Positions 38,504-64,000 are shown, counted from the stretch's first letter. The stretch is DNA of 64,000 bases from Haloarcula rubripromontorii (GCF_001280425.1 NZ_LIUF01000002.1:1-64000), one strand, 5' to 3'. The notes: generated by a model not told the origin, from the sequence alone. Program-made: numbers and translations.

Positions 38504-38522
38504 ATGCCGCCTCCCGGATTTG
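38504..38522. repeat. att site, left copy
   Basis: 19 bp identical to 46500-46518. Beyond the core, the region to about 38575 still resembles a tRNA: CTGAGCTAAG (38565-38574), the complement of a tRNA A-box, sits 59 bp from the acceptor end, against 58 bp in the intact tRNA-Phe. Confidence 0.9.
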
Positions 38523-38577
38523 GCCCCTCGGGGCTGCTATTGCCCCTGAGTCAAGCTTTCCGGCCTGAGCTAAGCGA
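38504..38577 (-). pseudogene. tRNA-Phe-like remnant at the element's left end
   Basis: Read on the minus strand, the segment keeps the 5' CTTAGCTCAG (A-box) and the exact 17-nt 3' end of tRNA-Phe. The T-loop (GGGGCCAAATCC in place of CCGGTTCAAATCC), anticodon arm and 5' acceptor have diverged. It cannot fold as a normal tRNA. It may be a decayed full-length copy carried by the element. Confidence 0.55.
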
Positions 38578-38604
38578 CGTTTGGTGTTCTGCGGAGAGCA
38601 AACA

Positions 38605-39615
38605 ATGGAACTCGAACCTATCGCTCCCGCAGACGCAAAGGAAATGTTCCTCTCACATCGGCGTGACGAGGTTTCAGAAGCAACGTTGCAGGGCTATCAC
38701 TACCGCCTCAAACCATTCGTGAAGTGGTGTGAGCAAGAGGGCTTTGGGAATCTTAATGACCTGACGGCCCGCTCACTTCACGAATACCGCTTGTGGCGGA
38801 AGGAAGACGGAGACCTGAAGACGATTACCCTGAAGGGGCAGCTTTCGACTCTCCGTGTGTTCCTCAAGTTTCTCGAATCAATCGACGGAGCAGAACAGGG
38901 ACTACACGACAAGCTGCTCGTTCCCTCGGTCGAAGACGAGGAGGCTGTTAGCAACAGTATGCTTGAGGCTGAGCGGAGTGAACACATTCTCCGCTACCTC
39001 AGCAAGTACGAATACGCCTCGAAGCGCCACACGCTCTTTGCGGTGTTGTGGCACACCGGCTGTCGGATGGGTGCTGCCCACTCTATGGATGTTTCCGACT
39101 TCGACCGGGAGAGTCAAGCACTGAAAGTCCGGCATCGGCCCGACACCGGGACTCACCTGAAGAACAAGCAGGCTGGAGAGCGTATCTGTGCCCTCTCCGA
39201 AGAGGTGTGTGAGGTGCTGGAAGACTACATCAACGTGACCCGTGACGATGTGACCGACGACCACGGACGGGAACCTCTCTTCACGACGCAGTACGGACGG
39301 ATGCACAGGTCGAAGATTCGTGAGATGGTGTATGCTGTTTCCCGTCCCTGTGCCTACGGGAAGGAGTGTCCACACGGTCGAGAACCTGACTCGTGTGAGG
39401 CGGGGAACTACACGCAGGCAAGCAAGTGTCCGTCAAGCGTGTCTCCGCACGATATTCGACGTGGAGCTATCACCCATCTCCTCAGGAACGAGGTTCCCAA
39501 GCAGGTTGTATCCGACCGAGTGAACTCTTCGCCTGAAACGCTTGAGAAACATTACTCACAGTTGACCGAGGAGGAGAAGATGGAGCAACGAAGGGATTAC
39601 TTTGAGGATGTGTAA
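38605..39615 (+). CDS. int: Tyrosine integrase/recombinase
   Basis: 336 residues from ATG 38605. SAM-like N-domain (10-95). Catalytic residues: R154 in TGCRMGA, H282xxR285 in HDIRRG and nucleophile Y317 in LEKHYSQ. Between the first and second Arg boxes lies a Cys/His-rich insert (C249, C255, H257, C264, C275) that could bind zinc. It most likely catalyses insertion at tRNA-Phe, given its place 82 bp from the left att. The gene is intact and not interrupted by the att site, so it is not the SSV type. Confidence 0.92.
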   Translation: MELEPIAPADAKEMFLSHRRDEVSEATLQGYHYRLKPFVKWCEQEGFGNLNDLTARSLHEYRLWRKEDGDLKTITLKGQLSTLRVFLKFLESIDGAEQGLHDKLLVPSVEDEEAVSNSMLEAERSEHILRYLSKYEYASKRHTLFAVLWHTGCRMGAAHSMDVSDFDRESQALKVRHRPDTGTHLKNKQAGERICALSEEVCEVLEDYINVTRDDVTDDHGREPLFTTQYGRMHRSKIREMVYAVSRPCAYGKECPHGREPDSCEAGNYTQASKCPSSVSPHDIRRGAITHLLRNEVPKQVVSDRVNSSPETLEKHYSQLTEEEKMEQRRDYFEDV

Positions 39616-39648
39616 CCACTTGAGGAGATAAACACACCCTCCGCCTCA

Positions 39649-39660
39649 GGTTTCTAAACC
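39649..39660. terminator. Small hairpin after the integrase gene
   Basis: GGTTT and AAACC arms around CT, 34 bp after the integrase stop. A wider imperfect stem (CTTGAGG at 39619 with CCTCAGG at 39644) precedes it. Possible transcription end. The 238-bp gap to the next gene has no convincing gene. Confidence 0.35.
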
Positions 39661-39853
39661 ACCTGTCGTTAGATTTTGCAACCCCACGGAACTGAGCAAT
39701 AGCTATACGGAATAATCAGGGTACGGCGTAGCTGTACAATAACCTCCTTTGGTTCGTATTAGTCCTTGGTCACAAACAGGGGGAGCCTGTGTTCATTCCC
39801 GAAGAGTGTATGCACGGCTCAAGATTGCTTAATGACCTGCCTCCGTTAGAGTT

Positions 39854-41626
39854 TCAGAACTCGGGGAAGTCGAGCGAATCCGGCCACTCAAATTCGTCTT
39901 TTCGTTCAACGACTTTCTTCCCTCGACCGTCTTTTTTCTCACAGTCTGCAATACCGAGTACGTCCAGTAGCTCCATACGGTCCAGCACAGTGGGCTTAGA
40001 CGAAGAGACCTGTTCTGTTAGCTCAGGTCCCGAGAGGGAACCGTCGTTATCGGGATTTAGTACGGCTCGAACGACTGGACGACGCTCTTTTGGCATCGTA
40101 CTTAGAGCGATACGAGCGCACACGTCCATATCTTGTAGAGCGACCTGTGTTTCACCTCGTAGGAGCGCGTGTGCCTGTGCTATCTCCCAGAGCGCCGTTG
40201 AAACCCTGTATCCGCTGTCCTTTACGATTTCACCTGTTTCGGCAATTGGAGCACGACTGTGTTGAACGATGCGAGTGAGTACCTCCAAGATTTCCCGAAT
40301 CTCCTCAGTTGCAGAGCTATTCCATTCAACACTTCTGTAACCACCATACTGGTCCCAGATATGCGTCAGGAATTGATGCACTACCTCCTGACACCGCTTC
40401 ACTCGTTTGGTGTATGCGTCTTCCTCCGTCACCTCTTCTACAACCTGTCCAATGTTATTCGTGCCCGCCTTCTCGTGGAACACGAAACGGTTGCCAGTGT
40501 GTCCCATTGCGTTCCACGCCCGAGGTTGGAGCGGTGTGTTTGCCCCGAGAATCGCAAAGCGATAGTCCCCATCTTTGTATCCACGTTCTCCGTGTGTCCC
40601 ACTATCCGTCGTGTATCCGTCACCGTCCATTAGCCTTGCAAGCGTGGACATACGCTCCTCTATCGTATCTCTCCCACCAGAGAACCAGCTTGACATATCT
40701 CCTACCAAGAGAGTTTTGTGCTGTATTCGGGGAAGCAAGTCAACCTCTTCACGTAGCTGCTCCTCACTCAGGGAAGCATCGTGGCTTACAAACGAAGCGG
40801 GTGTTGCATCGTCACTCCGGTACACCAGCTCTTCCAGCCCTTCGAAGAAGCGTAGGACGGTAGTTTTTCCCGCCCCTGCTTCCCCGACAATCACCAGTCC
40901 GGTACTGTGCTGTGGGTCGCTAAGCAGTAACGTCGCCTGAACGGATAAGGCGGCTTCAGTCACATCCCACGTCTGTTTACCGAACTCTTCGAGAACTGTT
41001 TCCCTCACCTCGGAGAGAAGGTTCTCATCATCTAAGCCAGTGGTGTCACTACTATCACCGTCAGTGTGTTCGTCTGCTATGTACTCCTGATAAACCTCGT
41101 TCAAGACAGCTTCTCGCTCTTCGACGCTGGCAGGAGACCGCTCAAGCAGGTTACCGGTGATTGGCGACAGACGCTTGCTGTCAAACATCTCAACGCCGTT
41201 ACCTCGGCTCAACTCTTCAGGAACAGTCCCCTTTGCGAAGAGATAGATATTCTCTTTCTCGGGACCGTACTCTGCATATGTGTCGGCTTTCTCGATAATC
41301 TCCTCGGCCCACGATTCGGGTTCTCCGTCTGTAACCGCATCTTCCAACCAAATCCTAACAAGGGGGTCATCCTCGGTCACTGCGAAGCCGAGACCTTCGG
41401 CATCGGTAGCTGGTGCATCCGAGAGCGTCTTTGCCGTCTCGAATCCCACCAGCGTACTCGGGTCTGAGGGATTGGCCCGCTCTTCTGTTGTCGGATTGAT
41501 TGGGACGCTTTCTCCATCCTCTTTGGTGAGCCAACAGAACCATTGGTCACGCGATTTCAGTGCTTCGGGGATTTGCTTTCCAGTCTGTTCACTCTCTTTC
41601 TCTGCGGTTTCTGTGTTCGTACTCAT
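39854..41626 (-). CDS. PrimPol-like N-domain fused to AAA+ ATPase (probable replication protein)
   Basis: 590 residues. Residues 20-185 resemble the primase-polymerase domain of plasmid and virus replication proteins (QWFCWLTKEDGESVPINP, DPSTLVGFETA, GLGFAVTEDDP, VEMFD). The expected metal motif (D-x-D form) is replaced by I-W-L-E-D at 92-96. The usual S-G-x-G-x-H region reads PEKENIYLF with Y128 in place of His. The ATPase has Walker A GEAGAGKTT (248-256), Walker B-like LLVGD (306-310), and AILGANTPLQ as sensor region. The C-terminus is helical, possibly winged-helix. It is probably the element's initiator or helicase; primase activity is doubtful. Confidence 0.7.
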   Translation of the reverse strand: MSTNTETAEKESEQTGKQIPEALKSRDQWFCWLTKEDGESVPINPTTEERANPSDPSTLVGFETAKTLSDAPATDAEGLGFAVTEDDPLVRIWLEDAVTDGEPESWAEEIIEKADTYAEYGPEKENIYLFAKGTVPEELSRGNGVEMFDSKRLSPITGNLLERSPASVEEREAVLNEVYQEYIADEHTDGDSSDTTGLDDENLLSEVRETVLEEFGKQTWDVTEAALSVQATLLLSDPQHSTGLVIVGEAGAGKTTVLRFFEGLEELVYRSDDATPASFVSHDASLSEEQLREEVDLLPRIQHKTLLVGDMSSWFSGGRDTIEERMSTLARLMDGDGYTTDSGTHGERGYKDGDYRFAILGANTPLQPRAWNAMGHTGNRFVFHEKAGTNNIGQVVEEVTEEDAYTKRVKRCQEVVHQFLTHIWDQYGGYRSVEWNSSATEEIREILEVLTRIVQHSRAPIAETGEIVKDSGYRVSTALWEIAQAHALLRGETQVALQDMDVCARIALSTMPKERRPVVRAVLNPDNDGSLSGPELTEQVSSSKPTVLDRMELLDVLGIADCEKKDGRGKKVVERKDEFEWPDSLDFPEF

Positions 41627-41971
41627 TGTTGTCTCCTATGAGGCGAGACCCGCAGCTACTCGTCGGTAGTAGCCCTCCTCGAAGCTTTACCGGGTGCTGT
41701 CGAAGTGGCTAATATTCATCAGCTACTCGCAAACTCACTGTTCCGAGGTGCTGATAGCCACGTCTCTTCGGGGGGTTCGCCGTACTATATCATAGTGCCC
41801 TACCCACTTAATTCTTATCAATATTCTGACAGGGTAAAACTTGCATATAAACGTTTTTCCCGGACATAATTCACGGCTTCCTAAGTGATAGAATTGCTAT
41901 CTGCTGAGTACAAATATACTATTTTAAATACTACCTTTGAAGATTCTACGAATATTTGTGACGAATAGGCT
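41627..41971. other. AT-rich divergent intergenic region inside the element
   Basis: 345 bp without a convincing gene, between two divergent genes. Minus strand carries CGTTTATATGC (near 41848) as a likely box A for the PrimPol-like gene. Plus strand carries CTATTTTAAATAC (about 41925) for the winged-helix gene. The low GC and the neighbouring replication-like gene make it a candidate replication origin, but no iterons were seen. Confidence 0.45.
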
Positions 41972-42502
41972 ATGACCGGTGATACAGAAGCGGGACACCG
42001 TATACTTGAGATATTATATGAAGACCACTTTGGCGATGACGACACAAACCTATCCTCAGATGATATAGCTGGGACAATTGACGACGTTGATGAATCACAG
42101 GTAAATCAGATTCTTGGAAACTTGCATCAAGCAGAGTTAGTAGACAAAACCGGCACACCCAAACTCACTTCTGAAGGCATCAAAGTCGTTCTTGACCAGA
42201 AAGAGCGGGAGGAACGTCAAAATGAACGAGAAGAGCGAAAGGCAGAGAGAGCGGAAAGACAGGAAGACCGAAAGCGCGAGATTCGGATTAACAAGAGTGT
42301 AGCATATCTCACGATTGCACTTGTTCTCGCGGGCGGGTTTCAGGGTGTTGCACGAAATCTTGTGTACTTCTCTGAGTGGGAACGATTGATTTATTCTCTA
42401 ATTGGTGCAGCGGTTATATTTGGTCTCACGCTCCTTTTTCTACTGTATGTCAACTGGTGGGACGTAGAAGAGGAATCACAATCTCAATCACAGACACAGT
42501 AA
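41972..42502 (+). CDS. Winged-helix membrane protein
   Basis: 176 residues. A winged-helix domain (about 5-68: HRILEILYEDHF, IDDVDESQVNQILGNLHQAE, TPKLTSEGIKVVLDQ) and a highly charged coiled coil (70-105, repeated EER/KAERAERQEDRK) precede two hydrophobic helices (about 110-130 and 138-162). The tail is Gln/Ser-rich. It would sit in the membrane with the helix domain in the cytosol. It converges on the GmrSD-type gene, whose end is 11 bp away. No known family function. Confidence 0.65.
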   Translation: MTGDTEAGHRILEILYEDHFGDDDTNLSSDDIAGTIDDVDESQVNQILGNLHQAELVDKTGTPKLTSEGIKVVLDQKEREERQNEREERKAERAERQEDRKREIRINKSVAYLTIALVLAGGFQGVARNLVYFSEWERLIYSLIGAAVIFGLTLLFLLYVNWWDVEEESQSQSQTQ

Positions 42503-42512
42503 CAGAGGTATC

Positions 42513-44399
42513 TTAATCCATAGCTGCTTCAGAGGAAGCTGTGACGCCTTCGTCAGTCCCGAACTGTTCCTCAATCTCATCAGACATTTCAAGCAAACGC
42601 TTGGTAATCAGGTTTTCACGTTCATTTAGGAATTCCTCAAAATTCGCCACCTCATACAGTTCCTCATCATCAGGGATGTAGTGCCTCTCAGTCTGCGAAT
42701 CGTGACGTGACTCTAACCACTCTACATAATCAAGGTCGGACTTTTCGGAATTCTCGTCAGGTGTGAGGAATTGGAGGTTTAGTAAATTATCACGCAGATT
42801 CTCATAACGGCTGGCCCGAGCTAAATCCATCCCGTGTTCGTCAACAAGGTTCTCCTGTGAAAGTTGGCTTCGAGGGAAGATGTGGTCAACCTCGAAGGTC
42901 TCGTGTTGACTCGCTGGTTCGGGGAAGTACAGTAGCGAAAGGAAAACCTCCACTCGCTTATTCCCGTACTGAAGGTCTTGGACCATATCTCGCACTTCTT
43001 CTTCAAGGAAAGTGAGAGACTTACCATTAGAAAGAAGCGTGCTGTGCAATTCTTCTAATGGGAATGTTCCGTCAGGTGCTGACCGAATATCGTTCCTTAT
43101 GGCATTGATAAGCGTATATGGTGCAGAATGGTACACGCCTTTCAACAGTGTCGAACAGAGCCAATAGAATAGCTTTGTCCGGGTTTGTCTGCCGTCCTTC
43201 GCATCCCATCCGAGTTTGACGTTATCATTATTGTAGAAGAAGTAAACAATAGGTATGAGTGATACTGTTGAAGACACAGCGTGTCCGTCCAATCCGTAGC
43301 TCTCCACTAAGTCCAGTGTGTCGAAAAGTGCATCCTCAAAGTCCGGGTCTTGGAACACTTCTTTCATTTGCTGTAGATTTTTATCAGAGAAATTCTGTAT
43401 ATCGTATTTGCTGGAAAGTTCTGAGGCAGCAAGCAGATTCCGCAGAATGAATCCAATATCGAAATCAAAGCCAGCCTGTGCATCATAGCCGTTCAGCTTG
43501 TCAACAAGGGTAGTTATCTTCTTTCGAGCGTCAATTGAGTTAGCGCCCTCCGACCATTTCGCGGTAGCCATTGATAGAAGCATTTCCTCCTTGCCAAGCT
43601 GTGTTCCGCCTTCATTTGCCCGAATGAAAATGTCGAGAACGTTATCACTGTGTTTGCTGTCAAGCTCGTAATAGTTGATAGTGTCGCGCTCGTGGATAGC
43701 CCGCCACAATTCATTGAGATTCTGTTCTATGTATTTACGATTAATCGCACTGTGGCTAACACCAGCAGCTTCCAATTCGTCTTGAATTTCATCAACAAGC
43801 GCATAACGCTCGTCCTGAGTCTCTACATTCAGAATATCGCCCACTGGATACCAGTACTCTGAAGCAGAATGTGACGGGTCTGGTTGTTTGAAGTCCAAGA
43901 TATATTTCAGCTTTCGGTCATCTTCTGTGACTCTGGACGGGTCAGACAAGAGGTTGATGTAGAGCTTTTTTCGAGTCCACGATTCTGGCTTCTTTCGTAG
44001 CTGTCGGTAACCTCTATCCGTCAGACTTCCTTTAAGTCCGATATAGAACGTTGTTAGACGCTGCTGACCATCAAGAACAAGCGTCAATTTGTCCGGTAAA
44101 TCTGTCGCGAACTCGTCTCTGACTTTCGGATTTCGGAATCTTACGTCGTCAAACTCGTCTGGATACACACCTTCAGTTATGTAGTGTTGTACGAATTCAT
44201 ATTTAATCTGATTTTCTGCAAATTTCCCCCGAGCGTTCCAAAAGAGGAATGAGCCTATTGGGTATCCCCTGATGACTGAATCGAATAACTGAATCATCTG
44301 TTCTTTGTCCCAAACGAATTCCCGCTGAATCCCCGGCAAGAAGATTTGATTATTAATGTCGGGTATAACATTGGCTATTTTCTTAGATTGGTATGTCAT
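42513..44399 (-). CDS. GmrSD-family DUF262/DUF1524 nuclease
   Basis: 628 residues. N-terminal DUF262: LPGIQREFVWDKEQMIQLFD, GYPIGSFLFW, and the ParB-like nucleotide motif DGQQRLTTF (D110). C-terminal DUF1524 with HNH-type EVDHIFPRSQ (D505-H506) and NLRDNLLNLQFLTPDENSEK. Fused GmrSD proteins are type IV restriction enzymes that cut modified (glucosylated) DNA using NTP. Other DUF262-DUF1524 proteins act in different anti-phage systems. Here it is cargo of an integrated element, so it likely protects host or element from phage. Low GC, unlike the backbone. Confidence 0.85.
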   Translation of the reverse strand: MTYQSKKIANVIPDINNQIFLPGIQREFVWDKEQMIQLFDSVIRGYPIGSFLFWNARGKFAENQIKYEFVQHYITEGVYPDEFDDVRFRNPKVRDEFATDLPDKLTLVLDGQQRLTTFYIGLKGSLTDRGYRQLRKKPESWTRKKLYINLLSDPSRVTEDDRKLKYILDFKQPDPSHSASEYWYPVGDILNVETQDERYALVDEIQDELEAAGVSHSAINRKYIEQNLNELWRAIHERDTINYYELDSKHSDNVLDIFIRANEGGTQLGKEEMLLSMATAKWSEGANSIDARKKITTLVDKLNGYDAQAGFDFDIGFILRNLLAASELSSKYDIQNFSDKNLQQMKEVFQDPDFEDALFDTLDLVESYGLDGHAVSSTVSLIPIVYFFYNNDNVKLGWDAKDGRQTRTKLFYWLCSTLLKGVYHSAPYTLINAIRNDIRSAPDGTFPLEELHSTLLSNGKSLTFLEEEVRDMVQDLQYGNKRVEVFLSLLYFPEPASQHETFEVDHIFPRSQLSQENLVDEHGMDLARASRYENLRDNLLNLQFLTPDENSEKSDLDYVEWLESRHDSQTERHYIPDDEELYEVANFEEFLNERENLITKRLLEMSDEIEEQFGTDEGVTASSEAAMD

Positions 44400-44540
44400 A
44401 GCACACGTGTTATAGCGACAAATTGTAAAAGCTTATCATCGGGTTGTGGACTGACTACCGACTGTTTAGGATTATAACTCAGAGAAGTGAGTTTACGAAC
44501 GTCAATTGCTGCTTGCATATTCATATCCTTTGTCAGAAAT

Positions 44541-44554
44541 GTGCAATATTGCAC
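44541..44554. promoter_or_regulatory. Perfect 14-bp palindrome GTGCAATATTGCAC
   Basis: Fully symmetrical, 142 bp upstream of the GmrSD start and 330 bp before the PH-SHOCT gene. Typical size and AT centre of a dimeric repressor site. No partner copy was found in the element. Confidence 0.45.
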
Positions 44555-44664
44555 AGACGGAGGAGAAAAGACCCACTATATGACACGAATCTCCCTCTAA
44601 CGAAGAATTTAGAAAATGCAATCAGAACTGCTCGAAAAGGTTTGAATCTCGTTAAGTTTCCTTG

Positions 44665-44826
44665 GCCCACAAAAGTCGGTCGTAGAGACAACAGTACACA
44701 AGCAATAGACCACTCTACGTGGATTCAGTATACAGCTGCCTTCTCCGAAGGCGAGTAAACACACTCCTTCCCCAGAGAGCATCAGAAGGAAACCGTAGGG
44801 GAGTGTGTTCACTTTCCTTTACGAAC
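44665..44826. repeat. Stem-loop repeat R1 (upstream of PH-SHOCT gene)
   Basis: Direct partner of R2. The well-conserved core is 44727-44826; a looser part begins at GCCCAC...GTCGGTCG (44665-44682). It contains hairpin GCCTTC-TCC-GAAGGC (44738-44752) and a large stem AACACACTCC (44758-44767) with GGAGTGTGTT (44800-44809). A CACTTTCCTTT run follows. Confidence 0.85.
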
Positions 44827-44870
44827 AGTCACCCAACCAATTTGTATACGTGTTCTCATAACACACGATT

Positions 44871-46025
44871 ATGGGACTATTCAGTAGCGGGCCGGACAAA
44901 GAGACACAGGAGTTAATTGATGCTGCGAACGGTGATTCCGTTACAGCCGATAAGCTGACGAAAGCAGAGACTGGTCGGATGGCGTGGGACCGGCTGAATG
45001 ATGGGCCACTAATTGACCACCTTTCGGATGACGAGCAGCCCCACTATATATTCTCTCAGCAAAGCAAATCTGGGGTCCGAGTTTCAGATGGAGAGAGTAT
45101 CCAGCCGGATGGGAAGTACCGGACGATGATGGCTGTAACTGATGACCGCGTTTTGTTCACTGCTGGCGGGGACACTGGAGACTCTACGCTCTCTATAGAT
45201 TCCGAGTCAATAACGGATATAGAAGCACGGAGTGGCCCAGAGAAGAGTGATGGAAGTGGGAAGGTCACTGTGTCCCTGAACACGGAAGACACGTCGATTA
45301 CCTTTCCAATAAAGACCGCAGGCTCAGTAAACTTGGCAGATGTACATTCTGACGGCGACGAGGTACAGGAAGCAGTTGATTACATTTCCTCACAGGCAGC
45401 CGCAGATGTAGACCGGACAGAGAAAGAGAAGTCGTCTATCCGTAGTGCCCGAAGACGAATCTCAGACGAAGAGAGTGGGGATTACGTCACGCCCGAGCGG
45501 GTGAATAAGGTGAAAGACATTCTCGATAGCGGTGAGGAGGTTTACTATCTGACCCGAGGCTCAACGGTCGATGTTGAAGGGTCATCAGCAGGAGAATCAC
45601 TGTGGGGAGATGACAGAAGTCGGAAAACCGGAACGAAAGGATACGTGAGGGCCGTAATCACGGACAAAAGGGTAGCAGTAAAGATACCACAGATAACTGG
45701 GAATGACGAGCGTTCTGTGCCCTACGAGAGCATTACAAGTGTGGACTTGGATACCGGTTTGGTCAACAAGCGCCTTTCTCTACAAACACCGGGGCAGACG
45801 TATCACATCGAAGCTCACGACCCCGGAAAAGACGAGGTACGGCGAGCGGTCAAATTCATTCGGAGCAAGATTGCCGAGTCGAACGAGGATACAGTCGTTG
45901 TTGAAGACTCCTCCGAACCGGACCCTACGGAACAATTGAAGAACCTCAAAGAACTCCACGAAGAGGGTGTACTGACTGACGAGGAATTTGAGGAGAAGAA
46001 ATCAGACCTGCTTGACAAAATATGA
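44871..46025 (+). CDS. Two-PH-domain protein with C-terminal SHOCT motif
   Basis: 384 residues, no membrane helix. Two bacterial PH-like domains (YokE-type): about 60-170 (TMMAVTDDRVLFTAG) and about 210-330 (RAVITDKRVAVKIPQITG). SHOCT motif at 353-384 (LKNLKELHEEGVLTDEEFEE). PH-SHOCT proteins recur in archaeal and bacterial accessory regions with unknown function; they probably form oligomers. The gene is boxed by repeats R1 and R2, suggesting a cassette. Confidence 0.75.
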   Translation: MGLFSSGPDKETQELIDAANGDSVTADKLTKAETGRMAWDRLNDGPLIDHLSDDEQPHYIFSQQSKSGVRVSDGESIQPDGKYRTMMAVTDDRVLFTAGGDTGDSTLSIDSESITDIEARSGPEKSDGSGKVTVSLNTEDTSITFPIKTAGSVNLADVHSDGDEVQEAVDYISSQAAADVDRTEKEKSSIRSARRRISDEESGDYVTPERVNKVKDILDSGEEVYYLTRGSTVDVEGSSAGESLWGDDRSRKTGTKGYVRAVITDKRVAVKIPQITGNDERSVPYESITSVDLDTGLVNKRLSLQTPGQTYHIEAHDPGKDEVRRAVKFIRSKIAESNEDTVVVEDSSEPDPTEQLKNLKELHEEGVLTDEEFEEKKSDLLDKI

Positions 46026-46043
46026 GTTTCGTAAAAACTCCTC

Positions 46044-46202
46044 AGCCCACGTCGGTCGGCTGTTGAGTCAGAGTCTTCGGGGGCAGTCTATTGTCAATGA
46101 AGTAGTATACGGTTGCCTTCTCCGAAGGCGAGTAAACACACTCCTCCCCAAAGAGCTTCAGCAGCAAATCGGAGGGGAGTGTGTTCACTTTCCTTTACGA
46201 AC
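46044..46202. repeat. Stem-loop repeat R2 (downstream of PH-SHOCT gene)
   Basis: Direct copy of R1 in the same orientation, core 46104-46202. It keeps the GCCTTC-TCC-GAAGGC hairpin and the AACACACTCC (46135-46144) / GGAGTGTGTT (46176-46185) stem. The loop sequence differs while the stems are unchanged, which points to selection for structure. It begins 18 bp after the PH-SHOCT stop. Confidence 0.85.
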
Positions 46203-46499
46203 ATAGAATGGGTCAGCAAACTCCGTGAATCTGGTTGCATATGATTGCAATTTCCAAAGCGGGGTGGGCCGGTGTTTCAGTTGGCTTCCAACACCGCGTT
46301 ATAAAAAAAGACGAGCCTTAGATGCTCAGACAAGCAAAATCGGGCACACCGAAAGTTTCTAGGAGCTACAGCGCGTTTCGATTATTGCAGAACGCCAGAC
46401 GTGAGCCGGTGCGTCCGGGGACCGGTTGAAATCTCACAAGGAAAGCGCGAATCGCAGGAGGGCGCGGATGCTCTCGGCTAAGAATCGTGCGGTAAGGGG
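46203..46499. other. Right-end non-coding region of the element
   Basis: 297 bp with no convincing gene. A 7-bp stem (CGGTGTT 46270-46276, AACACCG 46290-46296) is followed by TTATAAAAAAA, which looks like a plus-strand box A rather than a terminator. GC rises toward the att site. Confidence 0.45.
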
Positions 46500-46518
46500 A
46501 TGCCGCCTCCCGGATTTG
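46500..46518. repeat. att site, right copy within tRNA-Phe
   Basis: 19 bp identical to 38504-38522, covering the 3' acceptor strand and part of the T-arm of tRNA-Phe. Crossing over between the two copies would excise an 8.0-kb circle and leave an intact tRNA. Confidence 0.9.
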
Positions 46519-46574
46519 AACCGGGGACAGCTCGATCTTCAGTCGAGTGCTCTCCCAGTCTGAGCTAAGGCGGC
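46502..46574 (-). tRNA. tRNA-Phe (anticodon GAA)
   Basis: 73 nt read on the minus strand: acceptor GCCGCCT/AGGCGGC, A-box TAGCTCAG, anticodon loop CTGAAGA, and T-arm CCGGG/TTCAAAT. CCA is not encoded. No intron. Its last 17 nt are part of the attachment core of the element on its 3' side, so the gene stays intact after integration. Confidence 0.95.
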
Positions 46575-46912: not shown

Positions 46913-47078
46913 CCTCACTTCGTTCGTCGCAGAATGGGTCCGGGCGGATTCGAACCACGGTCACTTCGCGTTGCTTCGTTCCCTGATTCGAATCCGCTGT
47001 TCCACACAGACACCGCTGGCTCCTCACTTCGTTCGTCGCAGTCGGTGTTAGAAGTGGGTCCGGGCGGATTCGAACCAC
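46913..47078. repeat. Duplicated tRNA-Val 3' end and neighbouring direct repeat
   Basis: TGGGTCCGGGCGGATTCGAA plus CCAC (24 nt) occurs at 46935-46958 and again at 47055-47078, where it is the 3' end of tRNA-Val. A second 20-nt repeat, CCTCACTTCGTTCGTCGCAG, occurs at 46913-46932 and 47022-47041. The first copy is a scar of a past insertion or duplication at the tRNA. Confidence 0.85.
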
Positions 47079-47128
47079 CGGCCTCGGCCTTGTAAAGGCC
47101 ACGTCATAACCAACTAGACCACGGACCC
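47056..47128 (-). tRNA. tRNA-Val (anticodon TAC)
   Basis: 73 nt on the minus strand: acceptor GGGTCCG/CGGACCC, anticodon loop TTTACAA within GGCC stems, and T-arm GGTTCGAATCC. CCA not encoded. Directly upstream (in transcription sense) of the zinc-ribbon and tRNA-Phe genes. Confidence 0.95.
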
Positions 47129-57853: not shown

Positions 57854-58471
57854 CTATCCCGAGCCGTCGAACAGCCCACGTACGTCGTCGTCTTTCTGCT
57901 GTTCTAGTTCGACGTGGTCCCGGAGCCGCTGGTAGACGACGGGCCGCTGGTCGCGCCCGCGCACGAACGAGAACAGCATCCCGGTAAACTGCGAGCCGCC
58001 GTCGCCGTCGAGTTCGCTCCGCGCCCTGCCGACAGCGGCGTTGATGACTGCCTCGTCGTACCGGCCAGCCTCCGCCAGTACCTCGGCGGCGATGGCCGTG
58101 GCGTCGAAATCCAGCCCGTCGTAGTCAACGGTTTCGCCGTCGTGTGTTAGCGTCGGCGGGTCCGTCGCCGCGTGGTGGGGGTCAGCCGCCGTCGCCGCGA
58201 GGAACGACCGAACCTCGTCTAGTGCCACGCCGTGATACGGGTCGGGCAAGCCGTCGAGGTACTTCGCTGCGCTCTCGGCCAAGCCTTGCGCCCCCGACCA
58301 ATTCTCCTCGCTGGCATGGTGGACGACCGCGGTGAACTGGATGAGGCCGTGCAGGAATCGTTCGTCGTCGCCCGAACCGAGGTCCAGCCAGTACTCCTCC
58401 CACGCATCGTGTGCGGCGTGGTAGCGCCCTTCGTTGTACACTGCGATGCCGGCACGGAGATGGTCGCGCAC
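57854..58471 (-). CDS. DUF309 protein
   Basis: 205 residues from GTG 58471 (VRDHLRAGIAVYNEGRYHAA). The DUF309 core is HDAWEEYWLDLG followed by FLHGLIQFTAVVHHASEENW, giving conserved His, Glu and Trp residues on helices. The C-terminal third is a helical extension. Upstream in-frame starts at 58558 and 58573 would add a segment with poor codon bias that runs toward the tRNA-like region. Function unknown. Confidence 0.75.
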   Translation of the reverse strand: MRDHLRAGIAVYNEGRYHAAHDAWEEYWLDLGSGDDERFLHGLIQFTAVVHHASEENWSGAQGLAESAAKYLDGLPDPYHGVALDEVRSFLAATAADPHHAATDPPTLTHDGETVDYDGLDFDATAIAAEVLAEAGRYDEAVINAAVGRARSELDGDGGSQFTGMLFSFVRGRDQRPVVYQRLRDHVELEQQKDDDVRGLFDGSG

Positions 58472-58611
58472 ACGGGTGGGTTCGCCTCGCGGCCGGAAAA
58501 CCACATCGGCGTTTCGACCAGAGTTGGAAGCTGTGGCTTCGCGCTCTGGTATCGGTAGCATCGCTTGCAACACTGCCCGCTCGCTGTCGCTCGGGGTTCG
58601 GTGTCGGCAGA

Positions 58612-58691
58612 AACGTCCGGACGGAGTTCCACGCGAGCACCGCGAGCGTGGAGCACGTCCGGTCGTGAATGGAATGAACGTCCGGACGGAG
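58612..58691. repeat. 15-nt direct repeat of a tRNA-like acceptor end
   Basis: AACGTCCGGACGGAG at 58612-58626 and 58677-58691, 65 bp apart. In the second copy it continues into a T-arm. A further partial copy (ACGTCCGG) is at 58655-58662. Such repeats are left by insertions at tRNA 3' ends. Confidence 0.8.
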
Positions 58692-58800
58692 ATTTGAACT
58701 CCGGTCCCTGGCTCCGCAAGCCGTCTCCTGAAGTGGTCTCTCCACTTCCAACAACGGCCTGTTGTTCCTCCGTATAGGCAGATTCTCCGTCTCCGTACTG
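58679..58800 (-). ncRNA. tRNA 3'-end-like structured RNA, possible island attachment site
   Basis: On the minus strand a box A (58821-58829) precedes about 120 nt with four hairpins: AACAAC/GTTGTT (58750-58766), a 7-bp stem GAAGTGG/CCACTTC (58730-58748), GGCT/AGCC (58710-58722), and a tRNA T-arm CGGAG-TTCAAAT-CTCCG (58687-58703). It ends in a self-complementary acceptor-like tail TCCGGAC. A normal D-arm and A-box are missing, so it is not a standard tRNA. It may be a tRNA-Ser-type 3' fragment or a distinct small RNA. Confidence 0.55.
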
Positions 58801-58820
58801 CAATTGTATGTGCTTTCGGC

Positions 58821-58829
58821 TTATAAAGA
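58821..58829 (-). promoter_or_regulatory. Box A for the minus-strand structured RNA
   Basis: TTATAAAGA on the plus strand, i.e. TCTTTATAA on the minus strand, a good haloarchaeal TATA box. Predicted start of transcription near 58800. Confidence 0.5.
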
Positions 58830-59451
58830 CCCGCATCGATGGTGTGACTGACAACGTCGATTCCGTGAGTTCTCTACCCCTGACCCAACCAGTCACCTCA
58901 CCCCTCGTCGGAGAGAAATGCCCCGTTCTTGGCGAAGGTCAACAGGAGAGCGTGCCCATTTGGTGAATCGCCGCGTGTCTCTCTGGGAAGACACGAGTTG
59001 CGGAAACTTCCCATATGGTAAGACAATACGGCAGATTTCCGGAAAACTGGTTTCCCACCCCTCCCCCACGTGCTTCTTCAATAGATGAGCGGTCATCATT
59101 ACCGAAGGAAACGAACGAATCTCAAGGGCGGTGGTTGCAATCGGGCTCAGAGACTCCCTCGTCCCAGATGAGTTAGTCAGACCGGAGGAAAGAGGGTTCC
59201 CATTACTGATGCTGTTTTGCAGAGGCCATATACACCTCTTCGTTCAGTTCCACCGTATCGGTCGGCTGATGGTAGGAGGGCGGCAACCTGACTCCCCGCC
59301 CGAGAGATGAATGAGTTACGGGGTCGCACAAGTTGCTATCCAACTGCGCCGAGATTATCTTTCCGCTTGTACCCACCAAACCCATCACAGAGTATATCTG
59401 ACGGGTGGTTGTGTAGTGTATTATGTACGATTCGTTTCCCAATTGGAGTCT

Positions 59452-61662
59452 ATGACTATGGATAGGACACCAGAACAAGAAGCGGAAGAAAAAATCGAAT
59501 CTGAACTTGAGGAGCAGGGCTGGGAGAGGATTGATTCAGATTCGAATCGGACTGGTTACAGTAAGCATATACAACTTCCAGACGGCCGAGAAGCAGATTA
59601 TATACTATATCATTCAGGCAAGCCCGTGGCAATTGTTGAAGCAAAAAAATCAACAATAAATCCAGAAAATAAGAGAGACCAAGCGAGGGCATATGCTAAA
59701 AATCTTGATGAATCAAATACATACCACAATACGTACTCTGTCCCATTTACATACACGACAAACGGAGAAAAAACAGTATTTGAAGACCTTCGGAAAAATG
59801 CACCTCAATTTAGGGAGATATATAAATTCCACACGCCTCAGGATTTAGAGAGTCTGATTGATACACAGTACCTCGAAGTGATGGAGGAGCTTGAACATAC
59901 GAAGAGTGAAGATATTGATAAAGGTCTGTGGAACAACCAGTCTGAAGGATTTGATAGAGGGGTTGAATTAGTTACTGAGGGGAAAAACAAAATACTCTAC
60001 ACGATGGCAACAGGTTCTGGGAAAACTAGACTGGCAATAGCCCTTTCGTACGCATTTCTTGAAACAGGTCTTGCCGACAGAATACTATTCGCTGTCGATA
60101 CAGACCAACTGAGGACGGAGACAAGAAAAGGCTACAAAAACTATGAGCCAGTAGGGTCAGAGCCGTTCTCAAAAAATTATTTGGCAGGAAACTTAGACGA
60201 AGACGAGGAACACAAGCAGAATGTAGTCGTAACAACAACTCAGAAACTCAGCCGGAGGCTCCACGAGGGCGAGCACAATTTTTCTGTTGGTGAATTTGAT
60301 GTTTTGATTGCAGACGAAGCACATAGAGGAGTATTCAATAAGGATGGTCACGGAATAGCACTAGATTATTTCGACGCTCTGGAAATAGGTCTGACAGCAA
60401 CGCCGCACGAAAAGACACTGGAACGATACAATCACAACGAGGCATATAGCTATGATTACAATGATGCACTAAATCACCACCACGTTGTCCCATTCAAAAG
60501 CTACTCTGTTGATACGCAGATTATGACAGAGAAGGGATTCAGACACAACGGCGAGTGGTACTCGCCAAAGCAGATTGGAGAAGATATAATAATCAGAGAT
60601 TCTCAAGAAAAGGTTGCTGAAAAATTACTTGAAAATACGAAAGTAAAAGACGAACTGACGCTGTTCTTTGCACAAAACACGACTCACGCACGCGTTATTG
60701 TTGACGATTTGAGAGAGATATACGGAGACCTGTTTGATAACCCGTATGAGGAAATTAAGAGAGTGACTGGAGATGACTTCCAACCACACGTTACTTTATC
60801 AGAATTTAAACAACCATATAGACCACCACACATCATAGTGACAGTTGATATGGTTACTACTGGAGTAGATATTCGACCACTCAACAACATAGTACTGATG
60901 AGGCCTGTAAAATCAAAAGTTTTATTCAATCAGATGATGGGTCGCGGAACAAGAACACACGAAACAAAAGACCATTTCAAAATATTCGATTGTGTAAAAG
61001 CGTTCGCGTTCCACGATGGTATCCCCCCATTCGCCACAAAAGACGTTGAATACAATATTACTGAAAGCGGGGAGACTCCGATTACAGAACCAGAAGATGA
61101 GCCCGAAATTGTTGATGAACCAGACGTTGATGAGGTTATTAGAAACTGTAGAGTATATCCGTCGAAGAATAATGAGTGGGTCGAAAGAGATGAGTTTGCC
61201 CGAGAAATACAGTCAGTAATCAGAAATAACGACGAAGTTATCTCTAAAGGCGTTGAAAATTGCACCTCAATAAAAGAGGCTGATACAGAGATTGAATCCA
61301 TTCTTATTGATGAATGGAAACACTATCAAAAAGAAACTATACTTGACGCATTTGATGACTTAGATACACTATATTTGCTCTGTGTCAGAACAGTTGAAGG
61401 ATACGAAGAATTGCGGAGTAAAGCTAGATGCGCTAAGGAAAAAACGATTAGTGAGCACAATCTGACAGGAGAGCAAATAAAATTGGTACAAGATGTCTCC
61501 GACAGAGCTGTAACGGAGCGAGGTGGTATATCTCAAAACAACTTCTATCAACCACCCCTATCCTACGAGTGGGGTGTAGACGCTGCTGAAAGACTTATTG
61601 AGAACTTAGACGATGTTCTCAATACATTCAACCGGAATTTTCTGTATATTGAGACCGAATAG
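59452..61662 (+). CDS. hsdR: Type I restriction enzyme, R subunit (HsdR)
   Basis: 736 residues from ATG 59452 (MTMDRTPEQEAEEKIESELE). N-terminal PD-ExK nuclease: D49 in READYILY, E63 and K65 in IVEAKKS. SF2 helicase: motif I MATGSGKTRL (186-192), motif II IADEAH (287-291), motif III LTATPH, and motif VI region MMGRGTRTH. The C-terminal helical domain contacts the methylase complex. It is AT-rich against the backbone, a sign of transfer. First gene of hsdRMS. Confidence 0.92.
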   Translation: MTMDRTPEQEAEEKIESELEEQGWERIDSDSNRTGYSKHIQLPDGREADYILYHSGKPVAIVEAKKSTINPENKRDQARAYAKNLDESNTYHNTYSVPFTYTTNGEKTVFEDLRKNAPQFREIYKFHTPQDLESLIDTQYLEVMEELEHTKSEDIDKGLWNNQSEGFDRGVELVTEGKNKILYTMATGSGKTRLAIALSYAFLETGLADRILFAVDTDQLRTETRKGYKNYEPVGSEPFSKNYLAGNLDEDEEHKQNVVVTTTQKLSRRLHEGEHNFSVGEFDVLIADEAHRGVFNKDGHGIALDYFDALEIGLTATPHEKTLERYNHNEAYSYDYNDALNHHHVVPFKSYSVDTQIMTEKGFRHNGEWYSPKQIGEDIIIRDSQEKVAEKLLENTKVKDELTLFFAQNTTHARVIVDDLREIYGDLFDNPYEEIKRVTGDDFQPHVTLSEFKQPYRPPHIIVTVDMVTTGVDIRPLNNIVLMRPVKSKVLFNQMMGRGTRTHETKDHFKIFDCVKAFAFHDGIPPFATKDVEYNITESGETPITEPEDEPEIVDEPDVDEVIRNCRVYPSKNNEWVERDEFAREIQSVIRNNDEVISKGVENCTSIKEADTEIESILIDEWKHYQKETILDAFDDLDTLYLLCVRTVEGYEELRSKARCAKEKTISEHNLTGEQIKLVQDVSDRAVTERGGISQNNFYQPPLSYEWGVDAAERLIENLDDVLNTFNRNFLYIETE

Positions 61663-61712
61663 GCACTCCTGTGAAACAACTCTTTAAACAGAAGCGTGAG
61701 TGATTGACCTAT

Positions 61713-63113
61713 ATGGATGAAGAAAAGCTATGGAATGCGTTGGGCCCGCTTCAGAACAGCAAGCTACATATATCTGATTACATTGAGGAGGTATCAAGAA
61801 TATTGTTCTTGAAGGCAGTATCAGAGAGTAATCGGGTTACTTTCGACAAAACACCAGAAGGAGTTGGCGGAGCTGTTCATCTTGAAGAAGGGTACAGATG
61901 GGGAGATATAGTTGGAGCAGAGAGCTCACAAAAAAAGCTGGAGAAGTACAAAGGTGCGATTGAGAGACTATCTGATGACGGCGAACTAGCAAAGGATTTC
62001 TTTGAGGGATATTCAACGAAGTTTGACAAGGCATCTACTTTCAAAAAATTGACAGAGAATCTTGAGGAAATGCACCTTGACCAACATAATGACGACTTTG
62101 GGGATGCATATGAATTTCTGCTTGAAAAATATGCTGACAAAGCTGAAGGGGCTGGCGAGTACTTTACACCAAGAGAAATCATTCGGGCTATGGTAGAGTT
62201 TTCAGAGCCTCAAGTTGATGAAAGCCTCCTTGACCCTGCATCAGGTACAGGAGGATTCCTTATTCACACATATAATTATCTCGCCGATAAGACAGATAAT
62301 TTCAAAGACGTGGAGGAAGTGCCTGTGGAAGGCCATTTTAGAGCGCAGGAGATAGTCACCAGCACTCACGAACTTGGTGGAATGAATATGCTTCTTCACG
62401 GAATGGACGCTAGTGCTGTCGACAGGAAAGACAGAGACGGAAACCTGAGCAGAGATTCACTAGAGATGTTCAGACGTGATAGATATGAAGAAACGTATGA
62501 CTACATTATTGCAAATCCACCATACGGTGGTGATAATGAAGTTGAACCTATTGACCCGAAGTGTACCTCGACTATTGAAATTAATTTCTTAGTGCTTATA
62601 ATGAGATTACTAAGCAAGAATGGGAGAGCAAGTGTTGTCATACCGGATGGTATCCTATTCAATCAGTCCTTTTCATCGGTCAGAGAAGAACTTCTAAACT
62701 ACTTCGACATAGACTGCATATTGGCACTACCCGAGGGTGCATTTACGCCGTACGCGGGTGTGACGGCGAATGTGATATTCTTTGAGCGGAATAACGAGGG
62801 TACAGATGAGTTCTGGTACTATGATGCTCGTTCAGATTTTGATGAAGTTACCAAAGAGGAGAATCCGCTTGACTATAACAAGCATCTCAGGGAGTTTGTT
62901 GAGTATAAAGACCAGAGAGAAAACCACGACAAGTATTTTAAAGTAGATGCCGACAAGGTGGATGAGGGTAACTATGAGTTGCATCTAAAGAAGTACAAGG
63001 AATTCAAATATGAAGGGCATCGGCCACCGGCCGAGATAGCACAGGATATCAAAGGCGAACTGGACACGATAAGAACAGAACTCGACCAAATGATTGGTGA
63101 GACAAGTGATTGA
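61713..63113 (+). CDS. hsdM: Type I restriction-modification, M subunit (HsdM)
   Basis: 466 residues from ATG 61713. N-terminal helical domain HsdM_N (1-135), then an N6-adenine methylase with SAM-binding LDPASGTGGFLIHTYN (from 173) and catalytic NPPY (268-271). It methylates adenine in the target chosen by HsdS. Also AT-rich. Its last 8 bp overlap the start of hsdS. Confidence 0.92.
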   Translation: MDEEKLWNALGPLQNSKLHISDYIEEVSRILFLKAVSESNRVTFDKTPEGVGGAVHLEEGYRWGDIVGAESSQKKLEKYKGAIERLSDDGELAKDFFEGYSTKFDKASTFKKLTENLEEMHLDQHNDDFGDAYEFLLEKYADKAEGAGEYFTPREIIRAMVEFSEPQVDESLLDPASGTGGFLIHTYNYLADKTDNFKDVEEVPVEGHFRAQEIVTSTHELGGMNMLLHGMDASAVDRKDRDGNLSRDSLEMFRRDRYEETYDYIIANPPYGGDNEVEPIDPKCTSTIEINFLVLIMRLLSKNGRASVVIPDGILFNQSFSSVREELLNYFDIDCILALPEGAFTPYAGVTANVIFFERNNEGTDEFWYYDARSDFDEVTKEENPLDYNKHLREFVEYKDQRENHDKYFKVDADKVDEGNYELHLKKYKEFKYEGHRPPAEIAQDIKGELDTIRTELDQMIGETSD

Positions 63114-64000
63114 AAAAGATGAGCTTCCAACGAACTGGAATCTAAAGACTCTCGGTGAAATAGCGGAATTTCAGAATGGGAATGACTTTAGCAAAAGCCA
63201 GTGGGAGGAAGAAGGTAAACCAATTATTAGGATTCAGAACTTGACAGGAACCGGTGATTCTTACAACTACTTCTCCGGTGAAGTTGACAACAGATACAAA
63301 GTTGAGAAAGGTGACATTTTATTTGCTTGGTCTGGAACTATAGACGCATTCAGGTGGTATGGTGAAGATGCCTGGCTAAACCAACATATATACAAAGTTA
63401 CACAAAGCCAAGATGTGACAGAGGATTATCTGTACAATCTTCTCAAGCATTCTGCGAGAATACTGGAGCGAAAGAAAGTTGGCTCGGGGTTGCAACACAT
63501 AAGAAAATCACACGTTGAAGAGTTAGATGTGCCTGTTCCACCATTGGATGAACAGGAGCGTATTGTGGAAGCAGTGGAGGAGCGGTTGGAACGTGTGGAA
63601 CGGCTAGAAAAAAGCGTCGAGAACGTCGGCAGACTCGCAGATGAATACCAAGATAGTTTCACAATATCTCTATTTGCTGGATTAGACAATCTTAGAGATA
63701 ATGTAGACATCCAGAATCTCAGTGATTCAATACCTGATGAATGGGAAATGAAAAATTTTGGCGAGGTAATCCAGTCATCCCTATACGGTTGCAATCCAGA
63801 AACAGGTGAAGACATAGACGGGGTTCCATATCTTAGAATATCGGATATTAGAGAAGATGGCGGTCTGAAATATAGCGAATTACCAGAAAAAGCAAAATTT
63901 GAGGATGACTCTGGTGCAGAAAAATATAGTCTTAATAATGGAGATATTGTTATAGCAAGAACTGGAGGTCGTCTCTGTGGAAAGTCATACGTGTACGAAC
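63106..64000 (+). CDS. hsdS: Type I restriction-modification, specificity subunit (HsdS), cut by window edge
   Basis: At least 298 codons, open to the right edge, from GTG 63106 (GTG 63097 also in frame). First target-recognition domain: LPTNWNLKTLGEIAEFQNGN. Central conserved coiled coil: VPPLDEQERIVEAVEERLER. The second domain begins IPDEWEMKNFGEVIQ and continues PYLRISDIRE...IVIARTGG. Two complete-looking recognition halves define a bipartite target. GTG overlaps the hsdM stop, so translation is coupled. Sequence specificity cannot be predicted. Confidence 0.9.
   Translation, partial: MIEKDELPTNWNLKTLGEIAEFQNGNDFSKSQWEEEGKPIIRIQNLTGTGDSYNYFSGEVDNRYKVEKGDILFAWSGTIDAFRWYGEDAWLNQHIYKVTQSQDVTEDYLYNLLKHSARILERKKVGSGLQHIRKSHVEELDVPVPPLDEQERIVEAVEERLERVERLEKSVENVGRLADEYQDSFTISLFAGLDNLRDNVDIQNLSDSIPDEWEMKNFGEVIQSSLYGCNPETGEDIDGVPYLRISDIREDGGLKYSELPEKAKFEDDSGAEKYSLNNGDIVIARTGGRLCGKSYVYE

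What the first reader, a model, noticed from the sequence alone, without database searches (positions are those of the whole stretch)
38504..46518. An 8-kb element at tRNA-Phe with defence-like and unknown cargo and no visible virus genes
A 19-bp att duplication, an integrase next to one end and lower GC mark an intact-looking integrated element. Its five genes combine a PrimPol-like/AAA+ protein, a winged-helix membrane protein, a GmrSD nuclease and a repeat-boxed PH-SHOCT gene. There are no capsid or conjugation genes. This set is not a known defence system as a whole. It could be a mini-plasmid whose cargo defends the host or itself.
Basis: partly seen in the sequence, partly recalled or inferred. 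Interest (0 to 1): 0.82.

Follow-up and report, generated by a model that had tools for sequence, protein, structure and literature searches.

The report
Archaeal mobile cassette with swappable defences
A salt-loving archaeon carries an 8-kb piece of mobile DNA inserted at a tRNA gene; relatives in other genera carry the same integrase, replication gene and end module but a different set of DNA-cutting defence genes in the middle, so it looks like a delivery cassette whose defence cargo gets swapped.

Summary
An exact 19-bp repeat (38504-38522, 46500-46518) bounds an 8-kb low-GC element whose right copy is the 3' end of tRNA-Phe. Five congeneric genomes have the left flank close to or directly joined to tRNA-Phe without the element. 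Two genomes of other genera, one of them Halovenus carboxidivorans, carry the same frame at the same core: integrase 95% identical, PrimPol-AAA 58-60%, PH-SHOCT between inverted-repeat boxes 90-95%. Their middle cargo is unrelated: a GmrSD nuclease here, an Eco57I-type methylase with a PLD protein in one, a GHKL protein with a DNA methyltransferase in the other.

So this is a family of integrative elements with an exchangeable restriction-type cargo slot. PH-SHOCT belongs to the frame, not the cargo. The AAA+ half has an MCM-like predicted fold. The PrimPol half has lost its metal- and nucleotide-binding motifs in all three members, yet stays under purifying selection.

The closest analogues are archaeal cryptic integrated elements and staphylococcal SCC cassettes. 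Integration, the family and cargo turnover are supported by sequence. Excision, replication and defence activity are inferred. No circle was seen, and the transfer route is unknown.

The parts
38504..38522 (+). attL core, 19 bp, exact copy of the 3' end of tRNA-Phe
   Evidence: empty sites
38605..39615 (+). tyrosine integrase, 336 aa from the ATG (344 aa from the TTG at 38581); frame gene
   Evidence: Pfam PF00589 6.5e-13, PHROG integrase 2.2e-31; HxxR and C-terminal Tyr region readable in the translation; 95-96% aa in G177/G191, dN/dS 0.03-0.08
39616..39834 (.). conserved noncoding segment between integrase and replication gene, holding a widely spaced copy of the box motif (39630 AAACACACCCTCC ... 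GGGGGAGCCTGTGTTCAT)
   Evidence: inside the ~90-92% nt block shared with G177/G191; alignment and motif scan
39854..41626 (-). PrimPol-like domain with lost catalytic motifs (about residues 1-190) fused to an MCM-like AAA+ ATPase with C-terminal winged helix (about 200-590); frame gene
41972..42502 (+). 176-aa protein, winged-helix-like N-terminus, charged coil and two hydrophobic segments (read by eye); no strong relative found; probable cargo
   Evidence: PHROG transcriptional regulator 6.3e-5; only matches of E 4e-5 or weaker in 392 genomes
42513..44399 (-). GmrSD-type (DUF262-DUF1524) nuclease, 628 aa; cargo
   Evidence: PF03235 2.6e-27, PF07510 4.1e-6; PADLOC HEC-05 8.1e-166 over 1-607; DGQQRLTT and DH...N...N motifs present (motifs in PMC4619093)
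44597..44726 (.). stretch resembling the 3' end of the PH-SHOCT gene and its downstream DNA: a likely remnant of a duplicated PH-SHOCT unit
   Evidence: aligns to G177/G191 DNA spanning the PH-SHOCT stop codon at 75-78%, alignment
44727..44828 (+). upstream box: long inverted repeat GAGTAAACACACTCC ... GGAGTGTGTTCACTT
   Evidence: present in G177 and G191
44871..46025 (+). bPH_3-SHOCT protein, 384 aa; frame gene
   Evidence: PF14470 2.2e-23, PF09851 1.8e-9; 95% and 90% aa in G177/G191; dN/dS 0.05-0.09
46104..46203 (+). downstream box, 90-93% like the upstream one over the matched stretches
46374..46499 (.). right attP arm, conserved between elements of different content
   Evidence: 83% in Halovenus rubra L064, 76% in L065; visibly different at the empty site of G172
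46500..46518 (-). attR core
46501..46574 (-). tRNA-Phe (GAA), the integration target; intact tRNA gene

Best explanation
38504-46518 is an integrated mobile element of a small haloarchaeal family that uses tRNA-Phe as its attachment site. The frame is constant: attL, tyrosine integrase, PrimPol*-MCM-like gene, then at the far end a PH-SHOCT gene between inverted-repeat boxes and the right attP arm. The slot between PrimPol*-MCM and PH-SHOCT holds exchangeable, mostly restriction-type genes, here a GmrSD nuclease. Proposed working: the integrase excises the element at the 19-bp core and re-inserts it so that an intact tRNA-Phe remains; the MCM-like ATPase, guided by its winged helix and possibly by the catalytically dead PrimPol domain as a DNA-binding part, opens an origin on the circle, perhaps at the box repeats, and the host supplies primase and polymerase; the cargo gives host and element a defence advantage. 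Shown by sequence: boundaries, empty sites, family, horizontal spread, cargo turnover, loss of PrimPol motifs, purifying selection, MCM-like predicted fold. Inferred: excision, replication, role of boxes and PH-SHOCT, defence activity, transfer route.
For: att repeat at the tRNA 3' end; empty sites in congeners. Same frame with the same exact core in G177 (12.7 kb) and G191 (10.9 kb). Cargo differs: GmrSD/HEC-05; N6_Mtase/Eco57I methylase + PLD + 842-aa protein; HATPase + N6_N4 methyltransferase. Integrase block 90-92% and PH-SHOCT block 84-88% nt against 75-78% for a flanking ABC-transporter gene, hence recent horizontal spread. PrimPol*-MCM is far more diverged (about 68% nt, dS 1.6 or saturated) than integrase (dS 0.25-0.43), hence mosaic. 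MCM-like fold: Foldseek top hits MCM, VIA Z 17. Purifying selection on all frame genes. H. carboxidivorans has a third core-like site (1 mismatch) with its own integrase and another GmrSD, so probably a tandem element. Most loci with an MCM-like relative also show restriction-type genes nearby.
Against: No excised circle, reads or transfer were available; the circle junction was not found in viral contigs. The AAA+ family has an invariant Walker A lysine, but the Walker B stretch shows only one acidic residue, so ATPase activity is not assured. The structure model is moderate (mean pLDDT 60.6, PrimPol part mostly below 50). No origin is demonstrated. Only three members with the full frame were found among 392 genomes of the order draw. 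The cargo association has no formal background control.
Confidence: 0.68

Rival explanations
1. It is a satellite or reduced provirus: it integrates and replicates itself but is packaged by a helper virus, with restriction cargo that suppresses competitors.
For: Small size, integrase plus replication gene plus defence cargo without structural genes resembles phage satellites; the PrimPol part matches phage primase families.
Against: No capsid, terminase or packaging match in Pfam, PHROGs or NCBIfam; only one distant MCM-like relative (29%) in the viral contig collection; no full-length relative in the phage records.
Confidence: 0.14
2. It is a dead or host-domesticated tRNA island that kept its defence gene and no longer moves.
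For: Replication domain with lost primase motifs; a remnant of a PH-SHOCT 3' end upstream of the upstream box; no second copy found in this genome by DNA search with the box or the integrase.
Against: Intact cores on both sides, open frame genes under purifying selection (dN/dS 0.03-0.28), high frame identity across genera, conserved attP arm, likely tandem insertion in H. carboxidivorans.
Confidence: 0.14
3. PrimPol-AAA, the winged-helix membrane protein, GmrSD and PH-SHOCT together form one multigene defence system.
For: They are neighbours; GmrSD is a PADLOC candidate family.
Against: In G177 and G191 the frame genes stay while GmrSD and the membrane protein are absent and unrelated genes take the slot; no strong relative of the membrane protein was found.
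Confidence: 0.04

Closest known systems
Cryptic integrated elements (CIE) of archaea (Thaumarchaeota, PMC6563490)
   Same: Integrase, tRNA att duplication, replication gene of MCM/Orc or primpol type, no viral or conjugation genes, restriction-modification genes in some.
   Different: Haloarchaeal; a defined frame shared by members of different genera with a positional cargo slot; primpol with lost motifs fused to an MCM-like ATPase.
Staphylococcal cassette chromosome (SCC) elements (PMC7581432)
   Same: Site-specific recombinase plus MCM-like helicase (Cch) plus variable cargo.
   Different: Tyrosine instead of Ccr recombinase, archaeal host, tRNA target, PrimPol* domain, PH-SHOCT end module. 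A UDG-superfamily gene (not an inhibitor, as in SCC) sits beside the replication gene in two members.
NrS-1-type / pRN1-like PrimPol replication proteins (PMC8718748, PMC5862659)
   Same: N-terminal domain is homologous to NrS-1 PrimPol (phmmer 5.7e-13); primase-helicase fusion layout.
   Different: Motif A DxD and motif B SPSxxGxH are lost; the helicase part is MCM-like.
GmrSD type IV restriction enzymes / PADLOC HEC-05
   Same: Fused DUF262-DUF1524 with DGQQR and DH-N-N motifs.
   Different: Substrate unknown; nearest plasmid relatives are 46% identical.
SNJ2-type haloarchaeal integrases and the elements that carry them (PMC8371274)
   Same: Haloarchaeal, SAM-like N-terminus plus Phage_integrase domain, tRNA 3'-end target, intact integrase gene on integration.
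   Different: Family assignment was not tested here; no pleolipovirus genes.

Membership tests
Archaeal cryptic integrated element (CIE) | Integrase and flanking att repeats | tested here: met
Archaeal cryptic integrated element (CIE) | No virion or conjugation genes | tested here: met
   none among family hits to the five proteins
SCC element | Large serine recombinase (Ccr) | tested here: not met
   tyrosine recombinase, PF00589
SCC element | MCM-like helicase (Cch type) | tested here: inconclusive
   MCM-like predicted fold; helicase activity and Cch kinship not tested
SCC element | Variable cargo beside a constant recombinase/replication core | tested here: met
AEP / PrimPol enzyme | Motif A DxD and motif B SxH-type nucleotide-binding loop | tested here: not met
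   DLD replaced by WLE, RLE, RLE; SPSxxGxH replaced by GPEKENIY or GPEQTHIL; the motif A acidic pair is kept in all, and motif B in nearly all, of the 19 other haloarchaeal homologues aligned
MCM-type AAA+ | Walker A | tested here: met
   invariant K254 in a GxxGxGK[TS]-type loop
MCM-type AAA+ | MCM-like fold of the ATPase region | tested here: met
   Foldseek best E 2.2e-8 MCM2-7; VIA Z 17.1, 303 residues, rmsd 4.5, on a model of moderate confidence
MCM-type AAA+ | Walker B D-E pair | tested here: inconclusive
   the likely Walker B stretch has one acidic residue (D/E) followed by M or A
GmrSD type IV restriction enzyme | DGQQR motif in DUF262 and E/D-H-N-N in DUF1524 | tested here: met
   LVLDGQQRLTT; EVDHIFPR, NLLNLQFL, DEN (motifs from PMC4619093)
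GmrSD type IV restriction enzyme | Cleaves glucosylated hydroxymethylcytosine DNA, NTP-dependent | not testable with these tools
   biochemistry needed
SNJ2-type integrase | At least 30% identity over 60% to IntSNJ2 | not tested
   criterion read in PMC8371274; IntSNJ2 sequence not compared

The most novel reading that the evidence does not exclude
A distinct class of archaeal cassette elements, functionally parallel to SCC, in which a primase-polymerase that lost catalysis was kept as the DNA-binding part of an MCM-like initiator acting at the box inverted repeats, while a positional slot repeatedly takes up different restriction systems that spread between genera through tRNA-Phe.
Probability: 0.35. 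Interest if true: 0.72.

Novelty: new variant of a known kind. Interest (0 to 1): 0.56.

Why it matters
It gives a concrete, comparable set of archaeal elements with constant ends and changing defence cargo, a way to ask how haloarchaea acquire restriction systems and how the cargo is swapped. The PrimPol domain without its catalytic motifs, fused to an MCM-like ATPase and kept under selection, is a clear test case for non-enzymatic use of a primase fold.

Tried and rejected
One multigene defence system made of all five genes: rejected because cargo and frame separate in relatives. Active PrimPol: rejected on motifs. Repeats as a mobile family elsewhere in the genome: the box occurs only twice in this genome by DNA search, plus a degenerate copy in the element. 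Known RNA family in the boxes: Rfam finds only the tRNA. Circle junction in viral contigs: none. Winged-helix membrane protein: no useful relatives. OLD-type AAA in Haloterrigena KLK7 (L111) is not the MCM-like family, though a related integrase and PH-SHOCT lie beside it. No paper in the library was found on PADLOC HEC-05. A background control for restriction genes near other haloarchaeal integrases was not made.

Full report
Observation. The window holds an exact 19-bp direct repeat at 38504-38522 and 46500-46518, found nowhere else in the window. The right copy is the 3' end of tRNA-Phe on the minus strand, 46501-46574. The interior is 49.5% GC against 63.8% in the left part of the window. 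The tRNA-Phe region of congeneric genomes mostly matches the window from base 46500 onward and not before. Their left sides show empty sites: in G172, G157 and G083 left-flank sequence up to 38522 continues straight into the tRNA; in G125 the last 25 bases do; in G230 the left-flank match ends about 80 bp before it. The element is therefore real and precisely bounded.

Relatives. A protein search of 392 genomes of the order with the PrimPol-AAA protein gave two full-length relatives, G177 (60%) and G191 (58%), and eight further loci with the AAA half at 31-48%. Neighbourhoods show that G177 and G191 also have the integrase (95-96%) and the PH-SHOCT protein (95% and 90%). G177's contig 6 has the same length and position as Halovenus carboxidivorans NZ_WUUT01000006.1. 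The exact 19-bp core bounds both elements: 12.7 kb in G177 (L053 7006 to L107 1176) and 10.9 kb in G191 (L054 6898 to 17754), each with tRNA-Phe at the right end. Smaller cousins with diverged integrases and the same core at tRNA-Phe are Halovenus rubra (L064, about 5.2 kb, left core one mismatch) and G321 (L059, about 5.6 kb).

Frame and cargo. DNA comparison shows conserved blocks at 38504-39834 (90-92%) and from about 44740 to the att arm (84-88%), a diverged PrimPol-AAA block (about 68%), and nothing in between. The slot holds GmrSD here (PADLOC HEC-05, E 8.1e-166 over nearly the whole protein). In G177 it holds an N6_Mtase/Eco57I protein of 1017 aa, a weak PLD-type protein and an 842-aa protein of no known family; in G191 a HATPase protein, an N6_N4 DNA methyltransferase and small unknowns. 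G177 and G191 also have a UDG-superfamily gene between integrase and PrimPol-AAA that the window lacks. Cargo GC is about 45-46% in all three against 51-55% for frame genes. Loci with only the AAA half often have restriction-type genes near too: Eco57I-type enzymes (G035, G222), McrBC plus methyltransferase (G244), methyltransferases (G146), a PLD protein (G159). This association was not tested against a background.

Spread. A flanking ABC-transporter gene is 75-78% identical between this genome and G177 and G191, lower than the frame ends, which points to recent horizontal spread. Synonymous divergence differs within the element: dS 0.25-0.43 for integrase, 0.42-0.56 for PH-SHOCT, 1.6 or saturated for PrimPol-AAA, so the element is a mosaic. 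In H. carboxidivorans a further core-like sequence with one mismatch lies 8.9 kb to the left (L063 1025), followed by its own integrase and another GmrSD (PF03235 6.2e-33): probably a second element in tandem.

PrimPol*-MCM. The N-terminus is homologous to NrS-1 PrimPol. Motif A DLD reads WLE here and RLE in G177 and G191; motif B SPSxxGxH reads GPEKENIY and GPEQTHIL; the motif A acidic pair is retained in all 19 other haloarchaeal homologues aligned and motif B in nearly all. The serines and glycines of this loop are reported as important for NrS-1 activity (PMC8718748), and AEP motifs as essential (PMC5862659). Catalysis is thus unlikely, yet between G177 and G191 dN/dS is 0.28 for this domain and 0.11 for the rest. 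The predicted model (mean pLDDT 60.6; 202-590 mostly 70-90, the PrimPol part mostly below 50) matches MCM proteins (Foldseek E 2.2e-8; VIA Z 17.1 over 303 residues). The Walker A lysine is invariant; the Walker B glutamate is not evident.

Boxes. The PH-SHOCT gene lies between two copies of a long inverted repeat, GAGTAAACACACTCC...GGAGTGTGTTCACTT. The right arm and most of the left are kept in all six copies from three elements although surrounding DNA diverges. A degenerate, widely spaced copy lies in the conserved noncoding segment downstream of the integrase. Six of seven near-matches in the 64-kb window fall in the element. They could be initiator or regulator binding sites; this is inference. 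DNA at 44597-44726 resembles the 3' end of the PH-SHOCT gene, a likely duplication remnant.

Interpretation. The best reading is a haloarchaeal cryptic integrated element with a constant frame and an exchangeable restriction-type cargo slot. SCC elements are the nearest functional parallel, with a recombinase, an MCM-like helicase and variable cargo (PMC7581432), but the recombinase differs, so it is not an SCC. In Halorubrum ezzemoulense, restriction genes on islands were reported only on integrase-bearing islands (PMC11078007), which fits the pattern. Excision, replication, defence activity and transfer remain to be shown.

Noticed in passing
58000-64000: GC falls from about 63% to 42%, suggesting another island or element running off the right end of the window.
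   Followed up: no
46935-47128: A 24-nt copy of the 3' end of tRNA-Val (47054-47128) at 46935-46958 and a 23-nt repeat 109 bp apart; relatives vary here. Possibly an old integration footprint at tRNA-Val.
   Followed up: no
L063 1025-9921: Halovenus carboxidivorans: probable second tRNA-Phe element in tandem, with a diverged integrase, a 598-aa protein, a GmrSD nuclease and a SWIM protein.
   Followed up: partly
L034 547-1452, L038, L040: About 0.9 kb of extra DNA between left-flank blocks close to the empty site in G172, G157 and G083, absent from the window.
   Followed up: no
L111 7944-12296: Haloterrigena sp. KLK7 plasmid: a short PH-SHOCT gene, an OLD-type AAA/TOPRIM gene and a related integrase side by side.
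   Followed up: partly
L053 8340-8900, L054 8234-8794: UDG-superfamily gene beside the replication gene in two members, missing in the window's element.
   Followed up: partly
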